Origin: Methanomassiliicoccales archaeon
Lineage (GTDB): Archaea; Thermoplasmatota; Thermoplasmata; SG8-5; JAGLSY01
Reading direction: 5' to 3'
Assembly: GCA_030672365.1 (NCBI GenBank)
Contig: DAOVGM010000012.1
Location: 1-36,570 of the forward strand
Length of the DNA: 36,570 bases
Part shown: piece after piece, positions 79 through 31,902 of the stretch
How the letters are laid out: each line of letters starts with the position of its first letter
Numbering within the stretch: position 1 is the first letter of the stretch
Made by a program: the position numbers and the translations under genes
The notes under the pieces: generated by a model
The model's database searches: none
What the model saw: the letters and a program-made list of their open reading frames with translations, nothing else
What the model was told of the DNA's origin: nothing

Positions 79-891
79 TTACATTTTGGCCAAAAAGGCC
101 TTCCTCTCGATCTTGTTCTTGTTGGTTTCGAAGGGCGATAACACATCACTCTCGACCTCGGCCAGCCTGTCTATGAACTTGTTCATCGTCTGTACGGTCG
201 GGCTCCGTATGTCTAAGTCGACAACTTCGCACGATTTCCGAATCACGGACATAGCGTAATCAGTGTCCTGATGAAAGTTCTCGCAGAAGTGCGCCACGAT
301 GTTGTCCATCGCCTCCGCGGGGCTGATTTTTTCCACTGCCGGCTTGATGCTGACCTCCGTGTCCTGCGTGCCGGGAACGATCTTGCGCCCCAGCATCTTG
401 AAGGCTGTTTCCACATTTTCTCCGGTCTTCGCGCTGGTGACGAAAAAGTTGGCGTCGTACTTTTTCGCAATTTCCATCATTGCCCGGTTCTCGATTTTCG
501 TGTCGTCAATCAAGTCACATTTATTGGCCAAAAACACTACCGGAACGTTGCCCGCAACCTCTTTCAATGCCTTGAGCCAGTATTCCTCGAGGCTGGAAAG
601 CGTGTCGGGGCGCGTAATGTCGCAAACCATTAGAGCACCGGAAGTGCCTTCGAAGCTCATTGACTGGAGTTTCCTGTACTCCTTCTGGCCCAGTATGTCC
701 CAAATCATGAGGGTCAAGTTGAGTTCCTTGCCGAAATAGTCGACCAGGAGCTCCTTTTTCACCGTTTTGGTGCCTATCGTGGCGATGTACTTGTCGTCAA
801 AGGTGTCGAAAACGTATTTCTTGATGAGCGAGGTCTTGCCTACTGCGTTATCTCCCAGAAGACAAACCTTTTTTATCACCTTTTTCTGCAT
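79..891 (-). CDS. Ras/Rab-like small GTPase with C-terminal extension
   Basis: Predicted GTP-binding switch protein of 270 aa. All G motifs are visible: P-loop GDNAVGKTS (13-21), a switch I threonine in TIGTK (38-42), WDILGQ (64-69), NKCD (123-126) and TSAK (152-155). The GTPase fold ends near residue 170; the remaining 100 residues are mostly helical and charged and I do not recognise them. The frame extends to a TTG at 921, but the ATG at 891 has GGTGG five bases upstream and begins 17 bases after the preceding stop, so I use it. It is the third gene of a minus-strand set with the KaiC-like ATPase and the second GTPase. Its switch I region is almost identical to that of the neighbour, which suggests duplication. 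The partner and process are unknown. Confidence 0.85.
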   Translation of the reverse strand: MQKKVIKKVCLLGDNAVGKTSLIKKYVFDTFDDKYIATIGTKTVKKELLVDYFGKELNLTLMIWDILGQKEYRKLQSMSFEGTSGALMVCDITRPDTLSSLEEYWLKALKEVAGNVPVVFLANKCDLIDDTKIENRAMMEIAKKYDANFFVTSAKTGENVETAFKMLGRKIVPGTQDTEVSIKPAVEKISPAEAMDNIVAHFCENFHQDTDYAMSVIRKSCEVVDLDIRSPTVQTMNKFIDRLAEVESDVLSPFETNKNKIERKAFLAKM

Positions 892-907
892 TCTGGCCAC
901 CCGGGTA

Positions 908-1462
908 TCAGTCTGCTTCAATCATAGTCTTCAAAATCATATTGCCGAGGTCATCAAACGCCTTCTCGACATTTTCGCCGGTCTTCGCGCTGGAGAACAT
1001 AGCCGGCATGTTGTACCTCTTCACCTCTTCGTCGAATGCGGCCTGGTCGAAAACCCGTTGGTCTGTCAGGTCGTTCTTGTTGGCCAGAAATACAATGGGC
1101 ACTTCGCCGATTACGTCCCTGACGGAATCTATCCAGCTGTGAATTTCGGTGAGCGTCTCCTTTCGGGTGACGTCGCACACGGCCAGTATTCCGTGTGCTC
1201 CGTAGAAATAGGCATCCTGAAGAAGCGTCCTGAAACTCGGCTGGCCCATGATGTCCCAGATTATCATGTCCATGTTGGCATCCTGGTCCTCAATCGGGTA
1301 GGTCTTGGATTTCTTGGTGATTTTCGTACCGATGGTGGATATGTACTTGTCGTCGAAGATGTCCAGAACGTACTTCTTGATGAGACTGGTCTTGCCTACG
1401 GCGCTCTCACCCACAAGACATATTTTCGACTTGAACCTCCTGTCCGCCAGCATTACTACCAT
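908..1462 (-). CDS. Ras/Rab-like small GTPase
   Basis: A 184-aa single-domain GTPase. Motifs: P-loop GESAVGKTS (18-26), TIGTK in switch I, WDIMGQ (69-74), NKND (128-131) and SSAK (157-160), so nucleotide binding should be intact. There is no C-terminal cysteine for lipidation. The start codon lies 3 bases beyond the upstream ATPase stop, with an AAGGAG ribosome site inside that gene's end, so the two are translationally linked. It and the next gene are paralogs, differing mainly in the extra C-terminal domain of the latter. The family is known in archaea, but its roles are mostly unassigned; regulation by the adjacent ATPase is only an inference from the operon. Confidence 0.88.
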   Translation of the reverse strand: MVVMLADRRFKSKICLVGESAVGKTSLIKKYVLDIFDDKYISTIGTKITKKSKTYPIEDQDANMDMIIWDIMGQPSFRTLLQDAYFYGAHGILAVCDVTRKETLTEIHSWIDSVRDVIGEVPIVFLANKNDLTDQRVFDQAAFDEEVKRYNMPAMFSSAKTGENVEKAFDDLGNMILKTMIEAD

Positions 1463-2263: not shown

Positions 2264-2345
2264 CGCTCCGAGCAGGTTTTTGGGGGTTGGGAAAAGCCAG
2301 CGCAGGAGCGAAAGGGTGGGGGGTTTGAAGACTGGCTGGGGTGGG
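2264..2345 (+). repeat. G-rich hairpin element, copy A
   Basis: Outer stem CGCTCC (2264-2269) pairs with GGAGCG (2305-2310). Inside are GAGCAGG (2270-2276) and CCAGCGCA (2297-2304), which can form a helix with two purine mismatches. The inner stem is TTTTT / AAAAG and the loop GGGGGTTGGG. The tail holds GGGTGGGGGG and TGGGGTGGG (ends 2345), and further GGGTGGG and GGGGTGGG tracts follow to about 2430. The 246-base gap between the ATPase gene and the TPR gene is otherwise empty apart from the ATPase promoter. Confidence 0.8.
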
Positions 2346-3994: not shown

Positions 3995-4060
3995 AATGTT
4001 GTGTTAATTGCACAACATTTTACTTCGGGACGCGAAGCGAACCGAAGTAACGCCAGCACG
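3995..4060 (+). repeat. Double-hairpin module P in the leader of a phosphoesterase gene
   Basis: Two adjacent hairpins: AATGTTGTG (3995-4003) pairs perfectly with CACAACATT (4011-4019), and ACTTCGG (4022-4028) pairs with CCGAAGT (4042-4048) around the loop GACGCGAAGCGAA. The second hairpin recurs at 31825-31851 inside element G as ACTTCTG / CAGAAGT with loop GATGCGAAGCTAA, so one base pair has changed on both sides (G-C to T-A). AACGCCAGC follows in both. Here it ends just before the ATG at 4061. Confidence 0.65.
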
Positions 4061-4834
4061 ATGGAGAAGGTTATCAACCTCGGCGAGGGCATTCGGATTT
4101 CATCTGATTTGGCCGTATTTCTGACAGGGCCAGCAGTTCTCGGGCTCTGCGACCTGCACATTGGCTACGAGGCCTCGTTGCAAGCCGAGGCCGTTGCGAT
4201 TCCCGACTTCCAGCTCGAAATCATGATGAAGCGCCTGGAAAAACTGCTCGACAGCTTCGAGCCAGACATCGTGGTCATCAACGGCGACCTGAAGCACGAG
4301 TTCAGCAGGAACAGGGCGCAGGAATGGGTCGAGATAAATACTATCCTGGACATGCTGGCCCGCGACGGCGCGGACGTTCGCGTCGTCCGCGGCAACCACG
4401 ACAATTATCTGAAGACCATTCTGGCGAAGAGGGGCGTCGAGATGGCCGGCTCGTTCGAAGTGGGCGATTTCGTGTTCGTCCACGGCCACAACCCGCTGGA
4501 GCCCGACAATGTCAATCAAGATTCCATTGGGGAGAGATTCAAGATTTATGGGCACGAGCACCCTGTCATCCGCCTGAAAGATGAAATCGGCGCGATTATG
4601 ACCTTGCCGTGCTTCTTGCACGACCCTGCCAACAAGTTCCTCATTATGCCGGCGTTCAGCCCGCTGGCCTCGGGGACGAACGTGACTTCCCCCTCCCGTA
4701 CATTCATGATTAAAGAGTTGCGGGACAAGGAGCTGGCTGATGCGAAAATCTATGCCGTGGGAGACGACGGCATCCTGGACTTCGGGACGGTGGGGGCGCT
4801 CAGGAAGATGCACGAGACAGAGGAATATCGATGA
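4061..4834 (+). CDS. Calcineurin-like metallophosphoesterase (COG1407-like)
   Basis: A 257-aa predicted two-metal phosphoesterase. The full metal-ligand series is present: DLH (31-33), GD in NGDLKH (75-76), GNHD (111-114), HGH (141-143) and GHEH (164-167). The GDxKH form is typical of COG1407 proteins, which in many genomes neighbour Lhr-type helicases; none is seen here. An in-frame GTG at 4001 would extend the protein through the hairpin module, with low-complexity unlikely sequence, so I start at the ATG at 4061. No clear ribosome site precedes it. It overlaps the next gene by ATGA. Substrate unknown. Confidence 0.82.
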   Translation: MEKVINLGEGIRISSDLAVFLTGPAVLGLCDLHIGYEASLQAEAVAIPDFQLEIMMKRLEKLLDSFEPDIVVINGDLKHEFSRNRAQEWVEINTILDMLARDGADVRVVRGNHDNYLKTILAKRGVEMAGSFEVGDFVFVHGHNPLEPDNVNQDSIGERFKIYGHEHPVIRLKDEIGAIMTLPCFLHDPANKFLIMPAFSPLASGTNVTSPSRTFMIKELRDKELADAKIYAVGDDGILDFGTVGALRKMHETEEYR

Positions 4835-8226: not shown

Positions 8227-9270
8227 ATGACAGACGAAAAATTCCATAAACTCATGGGCAACTGCGCCGAGGTCGTGACAGAGGACGAAGCCAGGGCACT
8301 TCTGGCTTCGGACAAGGAGCTCATTTCGTATTGGGGAATAGAGCCCTCGGGCCTGATGCATGTCGGCGGTTTGCTGGCCGCGAAGAAGTTGTTGGATGTG
8401 GCAGAGCTGGGTTTTAAAACCACTGTCTTTTTGGCTGACTGGCATGCGATGGTGAACGACAAGTTTGACACAAATATGGACCACATCAAGGTCAGCGGCG
8501 ATTATCTTCGGGACTGCCTGGAAGGGCTGGGCTGCGTCCACCCGAACATAATCTACAGGTACGGGAACGAGCTCGTCGACGACCCGAAATACTGGGAGCG
8601 GGTGCTCAGGATATCGAAGGCGTCCACGGTTGCCAGGATAAAGAGGGCGATGACTATCATGGGCAGGAGCGAGGACGAGGCGGACAGCGACGCCTCGAAG
8701 CTCATCTATCCCGCCATGCAGGTTGCCGACATCTACCATCTGGACGTCGACCTGGCACTCGGCGGAATGGACCAGAGGCACGCGCATATGCTTGCCCGCG
8801 ACGCGGCCGAGAAGCTCGGCGAGAAGAAGCCGGTTGCGTTACACTGGCCGTTGCTCATGGGGCTGCAGGGCGGGGGCCGCATGGACGCCGCGGAGGGTAA
8901 GATGAGCAAGTCGGACCCGAACTCGTGCATCTTCATCCACGATACGCCGGAGGACATCCAGGCGAAGTTCAACAAGGCCTACTGCCCTGCTGGCGAGGTG
9001 GATGAAAACCCGGTGCTCGACCACTGCCGCCTTATCGTATTCCCGTTCGTCGGCCAGATGGAGGTCAAGAGGCCGGAGAAGTTCGGCGGCGATCTGGTGT
9101 TCGAAAGCTATGAAGACCTGGTCGTGGCTTACAGGAACGGCCTCCACCCGGCAGACCTGAAGAACGCGGTTGCAGGTCACATCTCGGACATACTGGCCCC
9201 TGCCCGCGAGCACCTCACTCAGAATTCATCGAATTTTGCGAAATTAAGAGAAATCATCGGAGAGAATTAG
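8227..9270 (+). CDS. tyrS: Tyrosyl-tRNA synthetase, archaeal type
   Basis: A class I synthetase of 347 aa that charges tRNA-Tyr in the cytoplasm. The HIGH-equivalent is HVGG (45-48) after the IEPSG tyrosine-pocket segment; KMSKS is at 225-229. The region MQVADIYHLDVDLALGGMDQ and the YCPAGEVDENP segment match archaeal TyrRS. An in-frame ATG lies at 8203, but the ATG at 8227 gives an N-terminus like that of the Methanocaldococcus enzyme, and an AT-rich box at about 8188-8199 sits the right distance for a start near 8227. No ribosome site is seen, consistent with a leaderless message. The next gene follows immediately. Confidence 0.9.
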   Translation: MTDEKFHKLMGNCAEVVTEDEARALLASDKELISYWGIEPSGLMHVGGLLAAKKLLDVAELGFKTTVFLADWHAMVNDKFDTNMDHIKVSGDYLRDCLEGLGCVHPNIIYRYGNELVDDPKYWERVLRISKASTVARIKRAMTIMGRSEDEADSDASKLIYPAMQVADIYHLDVDLALGGMDQRHAHMLARDAAEKLGEKKPVALHWPLLMGLQGGGRMDAAEGKMSKSDPNSCIFIHDTPEDIQAKFNKAYCPAGEVDENPVLDHCRLIVFPFVGQMEVKRPEKFGGDLVFESYEDLVVAYRNGLHPADLKNAVAGHISDILAPAREHLTQNSSNFAKLREIIGEN

Positions 9271-9705
9271 ATGGGAAAATCCAAGAGAACTGCAAACCAG
9301 AGAGCGTTCTTGATCGGCCTTATCGGCGGTTTCCTGATGCTGATAGCCGGGATAACTGGCTTGTCCACGTGGGCCGCAATGGGCAATGCCGCCATAACGC
9401 TCACCGGCATCGAGGCCCTGAAGTACGTGTTCCTGATACTCATGATCCTGGGCTCGCTCGGCGGACTTCTGGTCATCTTCGGCTCCTGGCTTTTCGTCTC
9501 GAAGGCCAAGATGAAGAGAAAGAACAAAGTATCCTCAGGAAAGACCCTGATATCCATCGGGGCTGGCTTCGGTCTCATCGGCCTGATAATCCTGATCGTT
9601 GTCGGCCTTCTGGAAGACCAGCTCGTGCAGCTCATGACAGGCGTCAACCTGGGACTAATCGGCCTCATCCTGTCAATCATCGCCAGGAAGATAGCGAGAA
9701 AGTAA
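9271..9705 (+). CDS. Small four-helix membrane protein
   Basis: A 144-aa protein with four predicted membrane helices, at about 11-32, 49-76, 89-110 and 113-138, and basic loops (KSKRTANQ at the N-terminus, KAKMKRKNK in the middle, ARKIARK at the end). The ATG follows the tyrS stop directly, with GGAGA inside tyrS, so it is in the same operon. I do not recognise a family. The glycine-rich helices and positively charged loops suggest a cytoplasmic N-terminus. Confidence 0.7.
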   Translation: MGKSKRTANQRAFLIGLIGGFLMLIAGITGLSTWAAMGNAAITLTGIEALKYVFLILMILGSLGGLLVIFGSWLFVSKAKMKRKNKVSSGKTLISIGAGFGLIGLIILIVVGLLEDQLVQLMTGVNLGLIGLILSIIARKIARK

Positions 9706-9733
9706 TTATTCGATACAGGCTAGATATTCCAGT

Positions 9734-9872
9734 CGCTCCGAGCAGGGCATAGGGGGACGGGTATGCCCAGCGCAGGAGCGAAAGGGTGGGGGGCCAACCC
9801 ACCGGATGGGGCGGGCAGCAAAATAGATACTGGTCGGGACGGGAAACAACCCACCCGCAATATGGGGCGGGC
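9734..9872 (+). repeat. G-rich hairpin element, copy B, with extended tail
   Basis: Outer stem CGCTCC (9734-9739) / GGAGCG (9775-9780); GAGCAGG at 9740-9746; inner stem GCATA / TATGC around loop GGGGGACGGG. The tail has GGGTGGGGGG and TGGGGCGGG (ends 9815). A second tail section to 9872 has CCACCCGC pairing with a following GGGGCGGG; copy C has the same section with CCCACC / GGTGGG. It lies between convergent genes (9705 and 9896); nothing else is seen in the gap. Confidence 0.82.
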
Positions 9873-9895
9873 CAAAAGGGTTTTCGACCCTCCAT

Positions 9896-10264
9896 TTAGA
9901 GCAGAGCCAACTGCCCTGTCACCGCGTCCACCAGATTTTCCGGCGCCGGGCCTATTCCCAGGCAGGTCACCGTCCCCGGCGGCAATTCCGTGTGGCCGGC
10001 GTCGGTAATCAGCGAATGAGGTAATTTATTCACCTTGGCCAGATGCTGCAACTCCCTCAGTTCTTCAATGTCGTGTGCTTTGAGCACGACCTTCCGCTGG
10101 CCCTCGTCGTACCACTTCTTGAACCACTTCGGGTTCGACTTTTTGGAGGCGAAAGCGCAGTTCACCGAGGCGTGAGAAACCTGGGCAGCCAGCTTGCCCG
10201 GGCTGAGCTTCAGGTCTATGCGTACCGCGATGACCAGTTTGTTTTCCGTAAGCGGTTTTTTCAT
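9896..10264 (-). CDS. pth2: Peptidyl-tRNA hydrolase, Pth2 type
   Basis: Releases peptides from prematurely dropped peptidyl-tRNA. At 122 aa it has the normal Pth2 size. Diagnostic segments are the KLSPGKLAAQVSHAS helix with its catalytic-region lysine and histidine, VVLKAHDIEEL, and LPHSLITDAGHTELPPGTVTCLGIGPAP. An ATG at 10273 is only one base after GAGGAG, while the ATG at 10264 has it about 10 bases upstream, so I use 10264. The gene lies 28 bases after the membrane protein gene on the same strand and is probably cotranscribed. Confidence 0.93.
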   Translation of the reverse strand: MKKPLTENKLVIAVRIDLKLSPGKLAAQVSHASVNCAFASKKSNPKWFKKWYDEGQRKVVLKAHDIEELRELQHLAKVNKLPHSLITDAGHTELPPGTVTCLGIGPAPENLVDAVTGQLALL

Positions 10265-10292: not shown

Positions 10293-10883
10293 TCAAACCA
10301 TCCTCTCGCTGTTCTCCATTTCCCAGATCTGGGCCTCGAGGTCTTTCAGCTTCTTCTGGAGGTCAAGCTGCTTTTTCCTGTAATAAGTTTGCATTTCTCC
10401 CGAATGCATCGCCTCCTTCTTCTCCATGTCCTCGATGGCATCCAGCAGCTGGAATTTCTCGTTTACCATGAGGCGGTGGTGGAACGCCTTTTTTCTATCT
10501 CTGATCTCCAGCCCGACAAGGCTTCTTGGGTCCGGCGGCGGGTTGCGGATGAGCACCGGATGCCACTTTCCGAGAATTGGAAAAGCGCCCCTGAGCCAAC
10601 CGATGAGGAAGAAGGAGAATGATATTGATAACAGGGTGAGGACGATGTAGCCAGTGGTGAAATATCCTATTCCCGTGTCGGGATTCGGGCCGAGGAAGTT
10701 CAGGGCGAAGCCGGTCAAAATCGTGATGACGATGCTGAGACCTATCGCGATGGAAATCCGATATAGGGTGTCGAATTCCCTGTCCAGCTCTCCCTTTCGC
10801 GGGAATAATGCCTGGACCAAAAAATATCCCGGAATGAAAAATATCAGGAAAAGGGCGGCTATCGCTCGAAGGATTCCCAGCAT
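10293..10883 (-). CDS. DUF1616-like membrane protein with coiled-coil tail
   Basis: A 196-aa protein. Helices at about 5-26, 44-66 and 75-98 and the FIPGYFLVQALFPRKGELD segment resemble DUF1616 proteins, which often associate with archaeal cell-surface or glycan loci. The C-terminal third (about 140-194) is strongly charged and heptad-like, so a cytoplasmic coiled coil. No good ribosome site; a TTTAAAA box at about 10914-10920 would give a short or absent leader. Divergent from purP, with 91 bases shared between them. Function unknown. Confidence 0.65.
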   Translation of the reverse strand: MLGILRAIAALFLIFFIPGYFLVQALFPRKGELDREFDTLYRISIAIGLSIVITILTGFALNFLGPNPDTGIGYFTTGYIVLTLLSISFSFFLIGWLRGAFPILGKWHPVLIRNPPPDPRSLVGLEIRDRKKAFHHRLMVNEKFQLLDAIEDMEKKEAMHSGEMQTYYRKKQLDLQKKLKDLEAQIWEMENSERMV

Positions 10884-15889: not shown

Positions 15890-15952
15890 TCTTCGCTTGT
15901 CTCTTCGCCTGTCTTTTGAAAAAGTAGGGAGGGTATCAGCAATAACTCTGTG

Positions 15953-16038
15953 TGGCGGGGGGCAGGAAGGCGGGGCAGGAAGGCGGGTAAGGGTGGGTCC
16001 CTACAATGTACTAGCCTGGTGGGGGGCCGGAAGGCGGG
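15953..16038 (+). repeat. G-rich tandem repeat tract
   Basis: Imperfect tandem units of the type GGCGGGGCAGGAA at about 15954-15988, then GGGTGGG, and again GGTGGGGGGCCGGAAGGCGGG at 16018-16038. The G-tracts recall the tails of the hairpin elements, but no GAGCAGG hairpin is present. It separates aspS from a small membrane protein gene and touches the latter's stop codon. Confidence 0.55.
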
Positions 16039-16278
16039 TTAGGAATCACTAATTGGACAAGTCTTCCTCGATAAAAGCCAGCCCCCAAGAAGCAGTCCGC
16101 TGGTGATAGATATAATTACAACGAATCTGCCGATGCTCCACATGTTGAAGATGCCCCAGCTCTCCTCGGCGAGGACGAAAAACGAGAGTACCGTTAATAG
16201 CAGGTAGCACACCAGCCCGATGAGCCCTAGGTAGAACGCGGACATGCCTATGCGATGCCAGTCGATTTTGATTTGCAT
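16039..16278 (-). CDS. Small two-helix membrane protein
   Basis: A 79-aa protein with two predicted membrane helices (about 12-36 and 48-68) and the charged ends expected of a real membrane protein. The start has GGTG six bases upstream. The C-terminus (LSRKTCPISDS) runs to the edge of the G-rich tract. No family is recognised. It stands alone on the minus strand, so it is less certain than its neighbours. Confidence 0.55.
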   Translation of the reverse strand: MQIKIDWHRIGMSAFYLGLIGLVCYLLLTVLSFFVLAEESWGIFNMWSIGRFVVIISITSGLLLGGWLLSRKTCPISDS

Positions 16279-25321: not shown

Positions 25322-25401
25322 CGCTCCGAGCAGGCTTTTGGGGGTTTGGGAAAAGCCAGCGCAGGAGCGGGGTGGGGGGAGAAGAGATTGGATGGGGTGG
25401 G
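25322..25401 (+). repeat. G-rich hairpin element, copy D
   Basis: Outer stem CGCTCC (25322-25327) / GGAGCG (25364-25369); GAGCAGG at 25328-25334; inner stem CTTTT / AAAAG; loop GGGGGTTTGGG. Tail GGGTGGGG and TGGGGTGGG (ends 25401), then a GGGAAAAATGAC segment shared with copy A. Unlike the others it sits between divergent genes. Confidence 0.82.
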
Positions 25402-25454
25402 CAGCAGAAATAAACTGAGCGGGAAAAATGACGACTGGCCAAACATACATAGCA

Positions 25455-27923: not shown

Positions 27924-27928
27924 CCGAC

Positions 27929-28007
27929 CGCTCCGAGCAGGCGAGGGGGGGATGGGGCGAGCCGGCGCAGGAGCGGGGTGGGGGGATGGCCCACTGGATG
28001 GGGCGGG
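27929..28007 (+). repeat. G-rich hairpin element, copy E (tandem G-A inner stem)
   Basis: Outer stem CGCTCC (27929-27934) / GGAGCG (27970-27975); GAGCAGG at 27935-27941; partner CCGGCGCA as in copy C. The inner stem is CGAG facing CGAG, i.e. C-G, G-A, A-G, G-C, a tandem G-A arrangement known to be stable in RNA. Loop GGGGGG-AT-GGGG. Tail to TGGGGCGGG at 28007, with further G-tracts to about 28026. Lies upstream of the elp3 promoter; nothing else is seen in the gap to 28079. Confidence 0.8.
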
Positions 28008-28078
28008 AAAAAGGGTGGCTGGGCGGGTCAAAATGAGGCCGGAGCTGGACAAAAGGTGTGGATAGTAGGGGTTGGCGC

Positions 28079-28387: not shown

Positions 28388-28440
28388 TTTAACCCTGATT
28401 GAGCATGGTGACGGGGATTATTAAGGTTTCGGGAAAAGGC

Positions 28441-28519
28441 CGCTCCGAGCAGGACGCGGGGGGACGGGCGCGTCCAGCGCAGGAGTTGGGTGGGGGGATT
28501 CTCGAAAACATGGGGTGGG
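28441..28519 (+). repeat. G-rich hairpin element, copy F
   Basis: Outer stem CGCTCC (28441-28446) / GGAGTT (28482-28487), with weaker pairing at its base; GAGCAGG at 28447-28453; inner stem ACGCG / CGCGT; loop GGGGGACGGG. Tail GGGTGGGGGG and TGGGGTGGG (ends 28519). Lies between two minus-strand genes and is therefore antisense to their direction. Confidence 0.8.
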
Positions 28520-28541
28520 AAAATGAGAAACTTTCGGCACT

Positions 28542-31766: not shown

Positions 31767-31902
31767 GCGCCACGAGCAGGTCTGCGGGGGAAGGGCTAAT
31801 GTGGTTTAAAATGCAAAACATTTTACTTCTGGATGCGAAGCTAACAGAAGTAACGCCAGCGCAGTGGCGCAGGGTGGGGGGCAACCCTACTGGCGGGGCG
31901 GG
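31767..31902 (+). repeat. Composite G-rich element, copy G, with nested hairpin module
   Basis: Outer stem GCGCCAC (31767-31773) / GTGGCGC (31864-31870), again different in sequence from the other copies yet fully paired. GAGCAGG is at 31774-31780 and CCAGCGCA at 31856-31863. After GGGGGAAGGG the inner stem is replaced by about 55 bases that match module P at 3995-4060: AATGT ... ACATT, then ACTTCTG (31825-31831) / CAGAAGT (31845-31851). Tail GGGTGGGGGG and GGGGCGGG (ends 31902). Between two plus-strand genes. Confidence 0.78.

What the first reader, a model, noticed from the sequence alone, without database searches (positions are those of the whole stretch)
31767..31902. Nested element: module P inside the loop of copy G
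Copy G keeps its outer stem (GCGCCAC/GTGGCGC) but its inner stem is replaced by a double-hairpin module found alone at 3995-4060. Either one mobile unit inserted into another or the elements are modular with swappable inner domains. The shared hairpin has a compensatory change (ACTTCGG/CCGAAGT versus ACTTCTG/CAGAAGT) and a conserved GA-Y-GCGAAGC-K-AA loop.
Basis: seen in the sequence. Interest (0 to 1): 0.55.

Follow-up and report, generated by a model that had tools for sequence, protein, structure and literature searches.

The report
Nested hairpin repeat elements in archaea
The nested hairpin unit is real and belongs to a large family of mosaic, DNA-hairpin-forming repeats, about 90 copies in this archaeal genome, that follow a genome-wide strand rule which flips at the probable replication origin and that look like small mobile elements with no known enzyme.

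Summary
Copy G (31767-31902) is one of about 90 copies in this 1.26 Mb Thermoplasmata genome of a hairpin element: covarying outer stem, invariant GAGCA/AGCGCA internal loop, covarying inner stem, G5NNG3 loop, G-rich tail. P is a two-hairpin domain with about 45 model hits genome-wide. It sits in the inner stem of this element, in a second element class, and beside or inside unrelated CCCCGTCTG..GGGCGGG hairpins. The solo copy at 3995 looks like a 5'-truncated element, not a free unit. Both domains covary strongly. Within contigs all copies share one strand (21 contigs, 66 copies, no exception). The one contig with a switch carries orc1/cdc6 with an ORB-like site between the switched copies, and base composition flips there too. 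Compared with a same-family genome (JAGLSY01), sites are gained and lost, with two plausible shared sites. Relatives occur across Thermoplasmata; in CP070751 larger versions separate about 15 toxin-antitoxin and defence cassettes in an integron-like array without attC boxes. No REP/RAYT, IS110, integrase or intron-type RT gene was found in the genome. Best reading: a modular, non-autonomous ssDNA-hairpin mobile repeat family whose domains shuffle between copies. The mobilising enzyme is unknown.

The parts
31767..31902 (+). Copy G: G-class element carrying the P domain (outer stem, GAGCA/AGCGCA internal loop, G-loop, P, G-rich tail)
   Evidence: model R2 match 31784-31861
31767..31773 (+). outer stem 5' arm GCGCCAC, pairs with 31864-31870
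   Evidence: sequence; covariation of this helix in 46 copies
31774..31778 (+). invariant internal-loop strand GAGCA
   Evidence: invariant in A1
31786..31795 (+). G-loop GGGGGAAGGG (G5NNG3)
   Evidence: conserved in A1
31798..31822 (+). P hairpin A (decayed in this copy)
   Evidence: alignment A2 and pair counts
31823..31853 (+). P hairpin B with GATGCGAAGCTAA head (GAA triloop)
31858..31863 (+). internal-loop strand AGCGCA
31864..31870 (+). outer stem 3' arm GTGGCGC
   Evidence: sequence
31872..31902 (+). G-rich tail GGGTGGGGGG-N13-GGGGCGGG
   Evidence: repeat families D4, D7
3995..4057 (+). solo P: hairpins A and B plus CGCCAGC, probably a 5'-truncated element just upstream of the ATG at 4061
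2264..2345 (+). plain G-class element
9734..9815 (+). plain G-class element with extra tail repeats to about 9872; site empty in a same-family genome
12153..12234 (+). plain G-class element
25322..25405 (+). plain G-class element
27928..28011 (+). plain G-class element
28440..28523 (+). plain G-class element

Best explanation
Copy G belongs to a high-copy family of small, non-autonomous, hairpin-forming DNA repeats in Thermoplasmata archaea. Each element is an imperfect hairpin built from swappable domains: a core hairpin with an invariant internal loop and a G-loop, a G-rich tail, and optional two-hairpin domains such as P. The elements spread slowly into intergenic DNA while one strand is exposed during replication, which gives them one orientation relative to the origin. 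P reached copy G by exchange between copies at the conserved G-loop, not as a separate transposon with its own ends. Shown: the family, its structure and covariation, nesting and mosaic copies, the strand rule with a switch bracketing orc1/cdc6, and empty sites. Inferred: that single-stranded DNA rather than RNA is the working form, and that replication-coupled insertion (not selection after insertion) makes the strand rule. Unknown: the enzyme.
For: 90 copies inventoried; 97.2% of stem cells paired against 72% when shuffled, and 159 double changes; P: 98.4% paired, 10 of 21 pairs with double changes. Wobble pairs about 2.4% of paired cells, and 39 of 40 scored hairpin-B heads are R-N-A triloops closed by C-G, as in the very stable DNA mini-hairpin GCGAAGC (titles). 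Strand: 21 contigs with two or more copies, 66 copies, none mixed. In C78 a copy at 5.6 kb is + and copies at 29-33 kb are -, with Orc1/Cdc6 at 8.9 kb and TTTCCAATGGAAATAAAGGGG just upstream; AT skew flips there. A second orc1/cdc6 in C65 shows no switch (copies + on both sides). Empty sites in both directions against JAGLSY01. Mosaic copies: CTAATG-type P with unrelated 5' arms, and C77:7253 with mismatched outer-stem halves.
Against: No candidate mobilising enzyme: no Y1 transposase, tyrosine recombinase or IS110 in the genome, and its only RT is a defence DRT8, though the MAG is 84% complete. Nearly every copy keeps paired stems, which is unusual for dead mobile copies and fits an in-place function as well. 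No target duplications seen. Only one copy lies left of orc1 in C78. Elements point towards the origin, so the G-rich strand would be the leading-strand template rather than the exposed lagging template, unless the C-rich strand is the active one.
Confidence: 0.55

Rival explanations
1. The elements are functional polar sites kept in place by selection (like KOPS, Chi or a G-quadruplex fork site) that help replication, repair or segregation; hairpin plus G tracts are read by a host protein.
For: Strand rule relative to the probable origin; 20 invariant columns of 49 and paired stems in nearly all copies; two sites plausibly shared with another genus.
Against: Most compared sites are gained or lost between same-family genomes; nesting and domain swapping are typical of mobile repeats; many Thermoplasmata lack the family (19 of 150 positive).
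Confidence: 0.2
2. The elements are structured RNAs (3' or 5' UTR elements, terminators or small RNAs).
For: G.T wobble in the element strand far exceeds A.C (18 to 1), so one strand is the folded one; copies lie in intergenic DNA.
Against: Orientation follows the chromosome, not the genes (coding DNA 101 kb co-oriented, 118 kb anti); wobble is rare for an RNA family; no Rfam match.
Confidence: 0.13
3. The core is a recombination site of an integron-like cassette system; in this genome the sites are scattered, in CP070751 they form cassette arrays.
For: About 15 large versions in 17 kb of CP070751, all one strand; 19 of 20 array genes co-oriented; cargo ParE, MazE/PIN, VapB/PIN, AbiV.
Against: attC boxes absent; no intact integrase found in CP070751 or in this genome; here the neighbours are housekeeping genes.
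Confidence: 0.1

Closest known systems
REP / BIME / REPIN sequences mobilised by TnpA-REP (RAYT) in bacteria
   Same: High-copy intergenic hairpins in composite mosaics, non-autonomous, thought to move as single-stranded DNA (PMC6006769, PMC3116915)
   Different: No GT[AG]G foot; no Y1 transposase in this genome; longer, multi-hairpin, G-rich; one strand per contig; archaeal
IS200/IS605 family and their non-autonomous derivatives
   Same: Subterminal DNA hairpins, lagging-strand targeting (PMC6006769)
   Different: No TnpA in this genome, no TnpB seen in the stretches read, no defined left and right ends, nesting of many domains
Integron attC sites and archaeal integrons (PMC9668308)
   Same: Hairpin sites with variable stems, same orientation in arrays, toxin-antitoxin and defence cassettes in CP070751
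   Different: No RYYYAAC/GTTRRRY boxes, no intact IntI found, dispersed among housekeeping genes in this genome, 300-nt sites in the arrays
Polar chromosome motifs such as KOPS or Chi
   Same: Orientation tied to the replichore
   Different: Long, structured, covarying, gained and lost between genomes

Membership tests
REP/RAYT system | Y1 (PF01797) transposase gene in the genome, flanked by the repeats | tested here: not met
   None in G000 or G002; in relatives the Y1 genes show no consistent element flanks; MAG incomplete
REP/RAYT system | GT[AG]G tetranucleotide at the hairpin foot | tested here: not met
   Column listing of 46 copies shows no such foot
REP/RAYT system | High-copy intergenic hairpins in mosaic arrangements | tested here: met
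Integron attC | R''/R' boxes (RYYYAAC ... GTTRRRY) | tested here: not met
   0 of 10 CP070751 elements; 4 and 1 of 90 in G000, not above background
Integron attC | IntI-type tyrosine recombinase | tested here: not met
   PF00589 absent in G000; only fragments in CP070751
Integron attC | Array of co-oriented small gene cassettes separated by the site | tested here: inconclusive
   Met in CP070751, not in the window
IS200/IS605 | Orientation bias relative to replication | tested here: met
   but elements point towards the probable origin
IS200/IS605 | Cleavage of ssDNA at defined ends by TnpA | not testable with these tools
   needs biochemistry
Known RNA family (Rfam) | Match to any of 4227 models | tested here: not met
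   (only tRNAs)

The most novel reading that the evidence does not exclude
The core hairpin is the recombination site of an undescribed single-strand DNA recombination system of Thermoplasmata that works without any known recombinase family, spreads short modular elements into one strand of each replichore, and in some species assembles integron-like arrays of toxin-antitoxin and defence cassettes.
Probability: 0.2. Interest if true: 0.88.

Novelty: new variant of a known kind. Interest (0 to 1): 0.62.

Why it matters
High-copy hairpin repeats with a mobilising enzyme are known from bacteria (REP/RAYT). This is an archaeal family of comparable density with near-perfect stem covariation, visible domain exchange and an orientation rule that switches at the probable origin. 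It gives a sequence-only marker of replication direction in uncultured Thermoplasmata, and a testable case of replication-coupled repeat spread without a recognised transposase. The link to cassette arrays in CP070751 raises the possibility of an integron-like platform outside the IntI/attC world.

Tried and rejected
An outermost stem joining upstream flank and tail: real versus permuted flanks gave no excess. Y1/RAYT transposase as mobiliser: absent here and not correlated with copy number in relatives. IS110 bridge RNA: IS110 only in two of 12 genomes, and in CP070751 it looks like cassette cargo. Group II intron or retron RT: the only RT is DRT8. TnpB near the CCCCGTCTG..GGGCGGG hairpins that hold P: none found in the stretches read. 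attC: boxes absent. Viral carriage: two specific patterns, no hit in IMG/VR; a looser pattern returned too many chance hits to use. Sites conserved in place: only two plausible shared sites.

Full report
What is there. The window is contig C20 of an unnamed archaeal MAG (G000, 1.26 Mb in 92 contigs, 84% complete). Its near relatives are Thermoplasmata MAGs. A BLAST search of the genome with copy G gave 51 matches. A pattern search on the core gave 75 matches, most of them with the family layout. A curated pass over stretches around them listed 90 elements. That list is a lower bound, since later model hits added more, and it includes a few overlapping or nested entries.

Anatomy. The plain element is: outer stem (6-7 bp, e.g. 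CGCTCC/GGAGCG, CGCGTC/GACGCG, GCGCCAC/GTGGCGC), internal loop GAGCA opposite AGCG(C/G)A, inner stem GG plus five variable pairs, loop GGGGGNNGGG, then a tail GGGTGGGGGG - about 11 nt - GGGGYGGG. In 46 aligned copies 97.2% of stem cells pair, against 72% when partners are shuffled, with 159 cells changed on both sides and covariation score 0.68 against 0.18. In a count over 53 copies, G.T wobble exceeds A.C by 18 to 1, so the G-rich strand is the folded one. Wobble is still only about 2.4% of paired cells in the 46-copy table.

P. P is hairpin A (e.g. AATGTTGTGTCAAATGCACAACATT) followed by hairpin B (e.g. TTACTTCGGGATGCGAAGCGAACCGAAGTAA). In 15 copies 98.4% of cells pair and 10 of 21 pairs change on both sides. 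A model of P finds about 45 places in the genome and a few in G001, G002, G011 and G012. Contexts: inside G-class elements after the G-loop; in a second element class (GAGCGAGCAGG with a pyrimidine-rich run, holding the related hairpin pair ATCTGTCG.. and CATGTCGG..); beside or inside CCCCGTCTG..GGGCGGG hairpins (C91, C69, C35 and L246); and inside another P (C90). Larger elements carry both hairpin pairs (C11:28516, C35:1957, C36:5150, C65:10275), and whole second-class elements sit inside G-class ones (C92:11773; C3 probably). Of 40 hairpin-B heads that the script could score, 39 are three-base loops of the form purine-N-A closed by C-G (20 rows were not scored). GCGAAGC is known as an extraordinarily stable DNA mini-hairpin (own knowledge; papers listed). 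Short triloops and rare wobbles point to DNA, not RNA, as the folded form. This is an inference.

Exchange between copies. One version of P (CTAATG..AACGCC) occurs with at least six unrelated 5' inner arms, so the inner stem is broken there, while other P copies keep matching arms. C77:7253 has a GCGCCAC-type 5' outer arm and a CGCTCC-type 3' arm. A 107-nt inner module differs by one base between G000:C28 and G012:C40. G000 and G012 share one whole 46,715-bp contig (G000:C58 = G012:C69), so binning overlap could explain that last case.

Strand rule. In 21 contigs with two or more listed copies (66 copies) no contig is mixed. Gene direction does not explain it: coding DNA is 101 kb co-oriented and 118 kb anti. 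At fourfold sites the element strand is slightly G- and T-rich (GC +0.035, sd 0.010; AT -0.038, sd 0.016). The model search later found one + copy at C78:5624, whereas the C78 copies at 29-33 kb are -. Between them lies Orc1/Cdc6 (8939-10183; Cdc6_C E 7e-27) with TTTCCAATGGAAATAAAGGGG just upstream, which resembles an archaeal origin recognition box (own knowledge; PMC4010727 describes ORBs next to initiator genes). AT skew by strand flips across it as well. A second Orc1/Cdc6 at C65:7281-8369 lies between + copies, with no switch. So the switch coincides with a probable origin. Elements point towards it, which would place the C-rich strand on the lagging-strand template. This rests on one copy on the left side and needs a complete genome. 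The second class and some solo P copies do not obey the rule strictly (for example C50:1064).

Mobility. Syntenic comparison with JAGLSY01 (G002, same family): the G000 element at 9734 is absent between the same two genes in G002, and G002 elements next to the orthologues of 10293-10883 and between the orthologues of 28542 and 29938 are absent in G000. Two intergenic places hold an element in both genomes, with different stem sequences. So sites turn over, though some may persist with compensatory change.

Distribution. A model of the plain core finds matches at E 1e-4 or better in 19 of 150 Thermoplasmata genomes over several families, and two specific patterns have no match in viral contigs. 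In CP070751 (G036) larger versions of about 300 nt separate about 15 cassettes in 17 kb, all on one strand, with 19 of 20 genes co-oriented and cargo including ParE, MazE/PIN, VapB/PIN and AbiV. attC boxes are absent and no intact integrase was found in that genome.

Mechanism. The best reading is a non-autonomous, modular, single-strand DNA hairpin repeat that spreads coupled to replication and exchanges domains with other copies. Shown: structure, mosaicism, strand rule, turnover. Inferred: DNA as the working form, replication-coupled insertion. Not identified: the enzyme, since PF01797, PF00589 and PF02371 are absent here and the only RT is DRT8. The main rival is a selected polar chromosome site; the near-universal stem pairing is as well explained by that.

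Literature. Searches for archaeal REP-like or cassette-associated structured repeats in Thermoplasmata found no description. The archaeal integron paper (PMC9668308) does not mention Thermoplasmata in the text searched. Only open-licence papers could be searched.

Noticed in passing
L181 (CP070751.1 1222500-1242400), also L182, L183: About 15 large (300-nt) versions of the core separate small cassettes (toxin-antitoxin, AbiV, small membrane proteins) in an integron-like, co-oriented array without attC boxes.
   Followed up: partly
G000:C78:8178-10183 (L443): Orc1/Cdc6 with an ORB-like site upstream; both element strand and AT skew switch across it, a probable replication origin.
   Followed up: yes
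G000:C69:13745-14179 (L193): A DRT8-type defence reverse transcriptase in this archaeon.
   Followed up: partly
G000:C58 and G012:C69: The same 46,715-bp contig is present in two MAGs of different families, so binning of one of them is wrong.
   Followed up: no
L431, L434, L435, L158: A second element class (GAGCGAGCAGG..TTTTTCTT, then AAAAAGAAGAA outside the outer stem) that may form a pseudoknot and does not always follow the strand rule.
   Followed up: partly
L240 and L242 (G011): Tandem G-class elements about 100 bp apart, each following an AT-rich spacer.
   Followed up: no
window 79-1462: Two adjacent, related small Ras-like GTPase genes (repeat D8, 81% identical over 100 nt).
   Followed up: no
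window 15950-16045: Cluster of GGGGCAGGAAGGCGGG repeats without the hairpin core, perhaps an eroded element tail.
   Followed up: no
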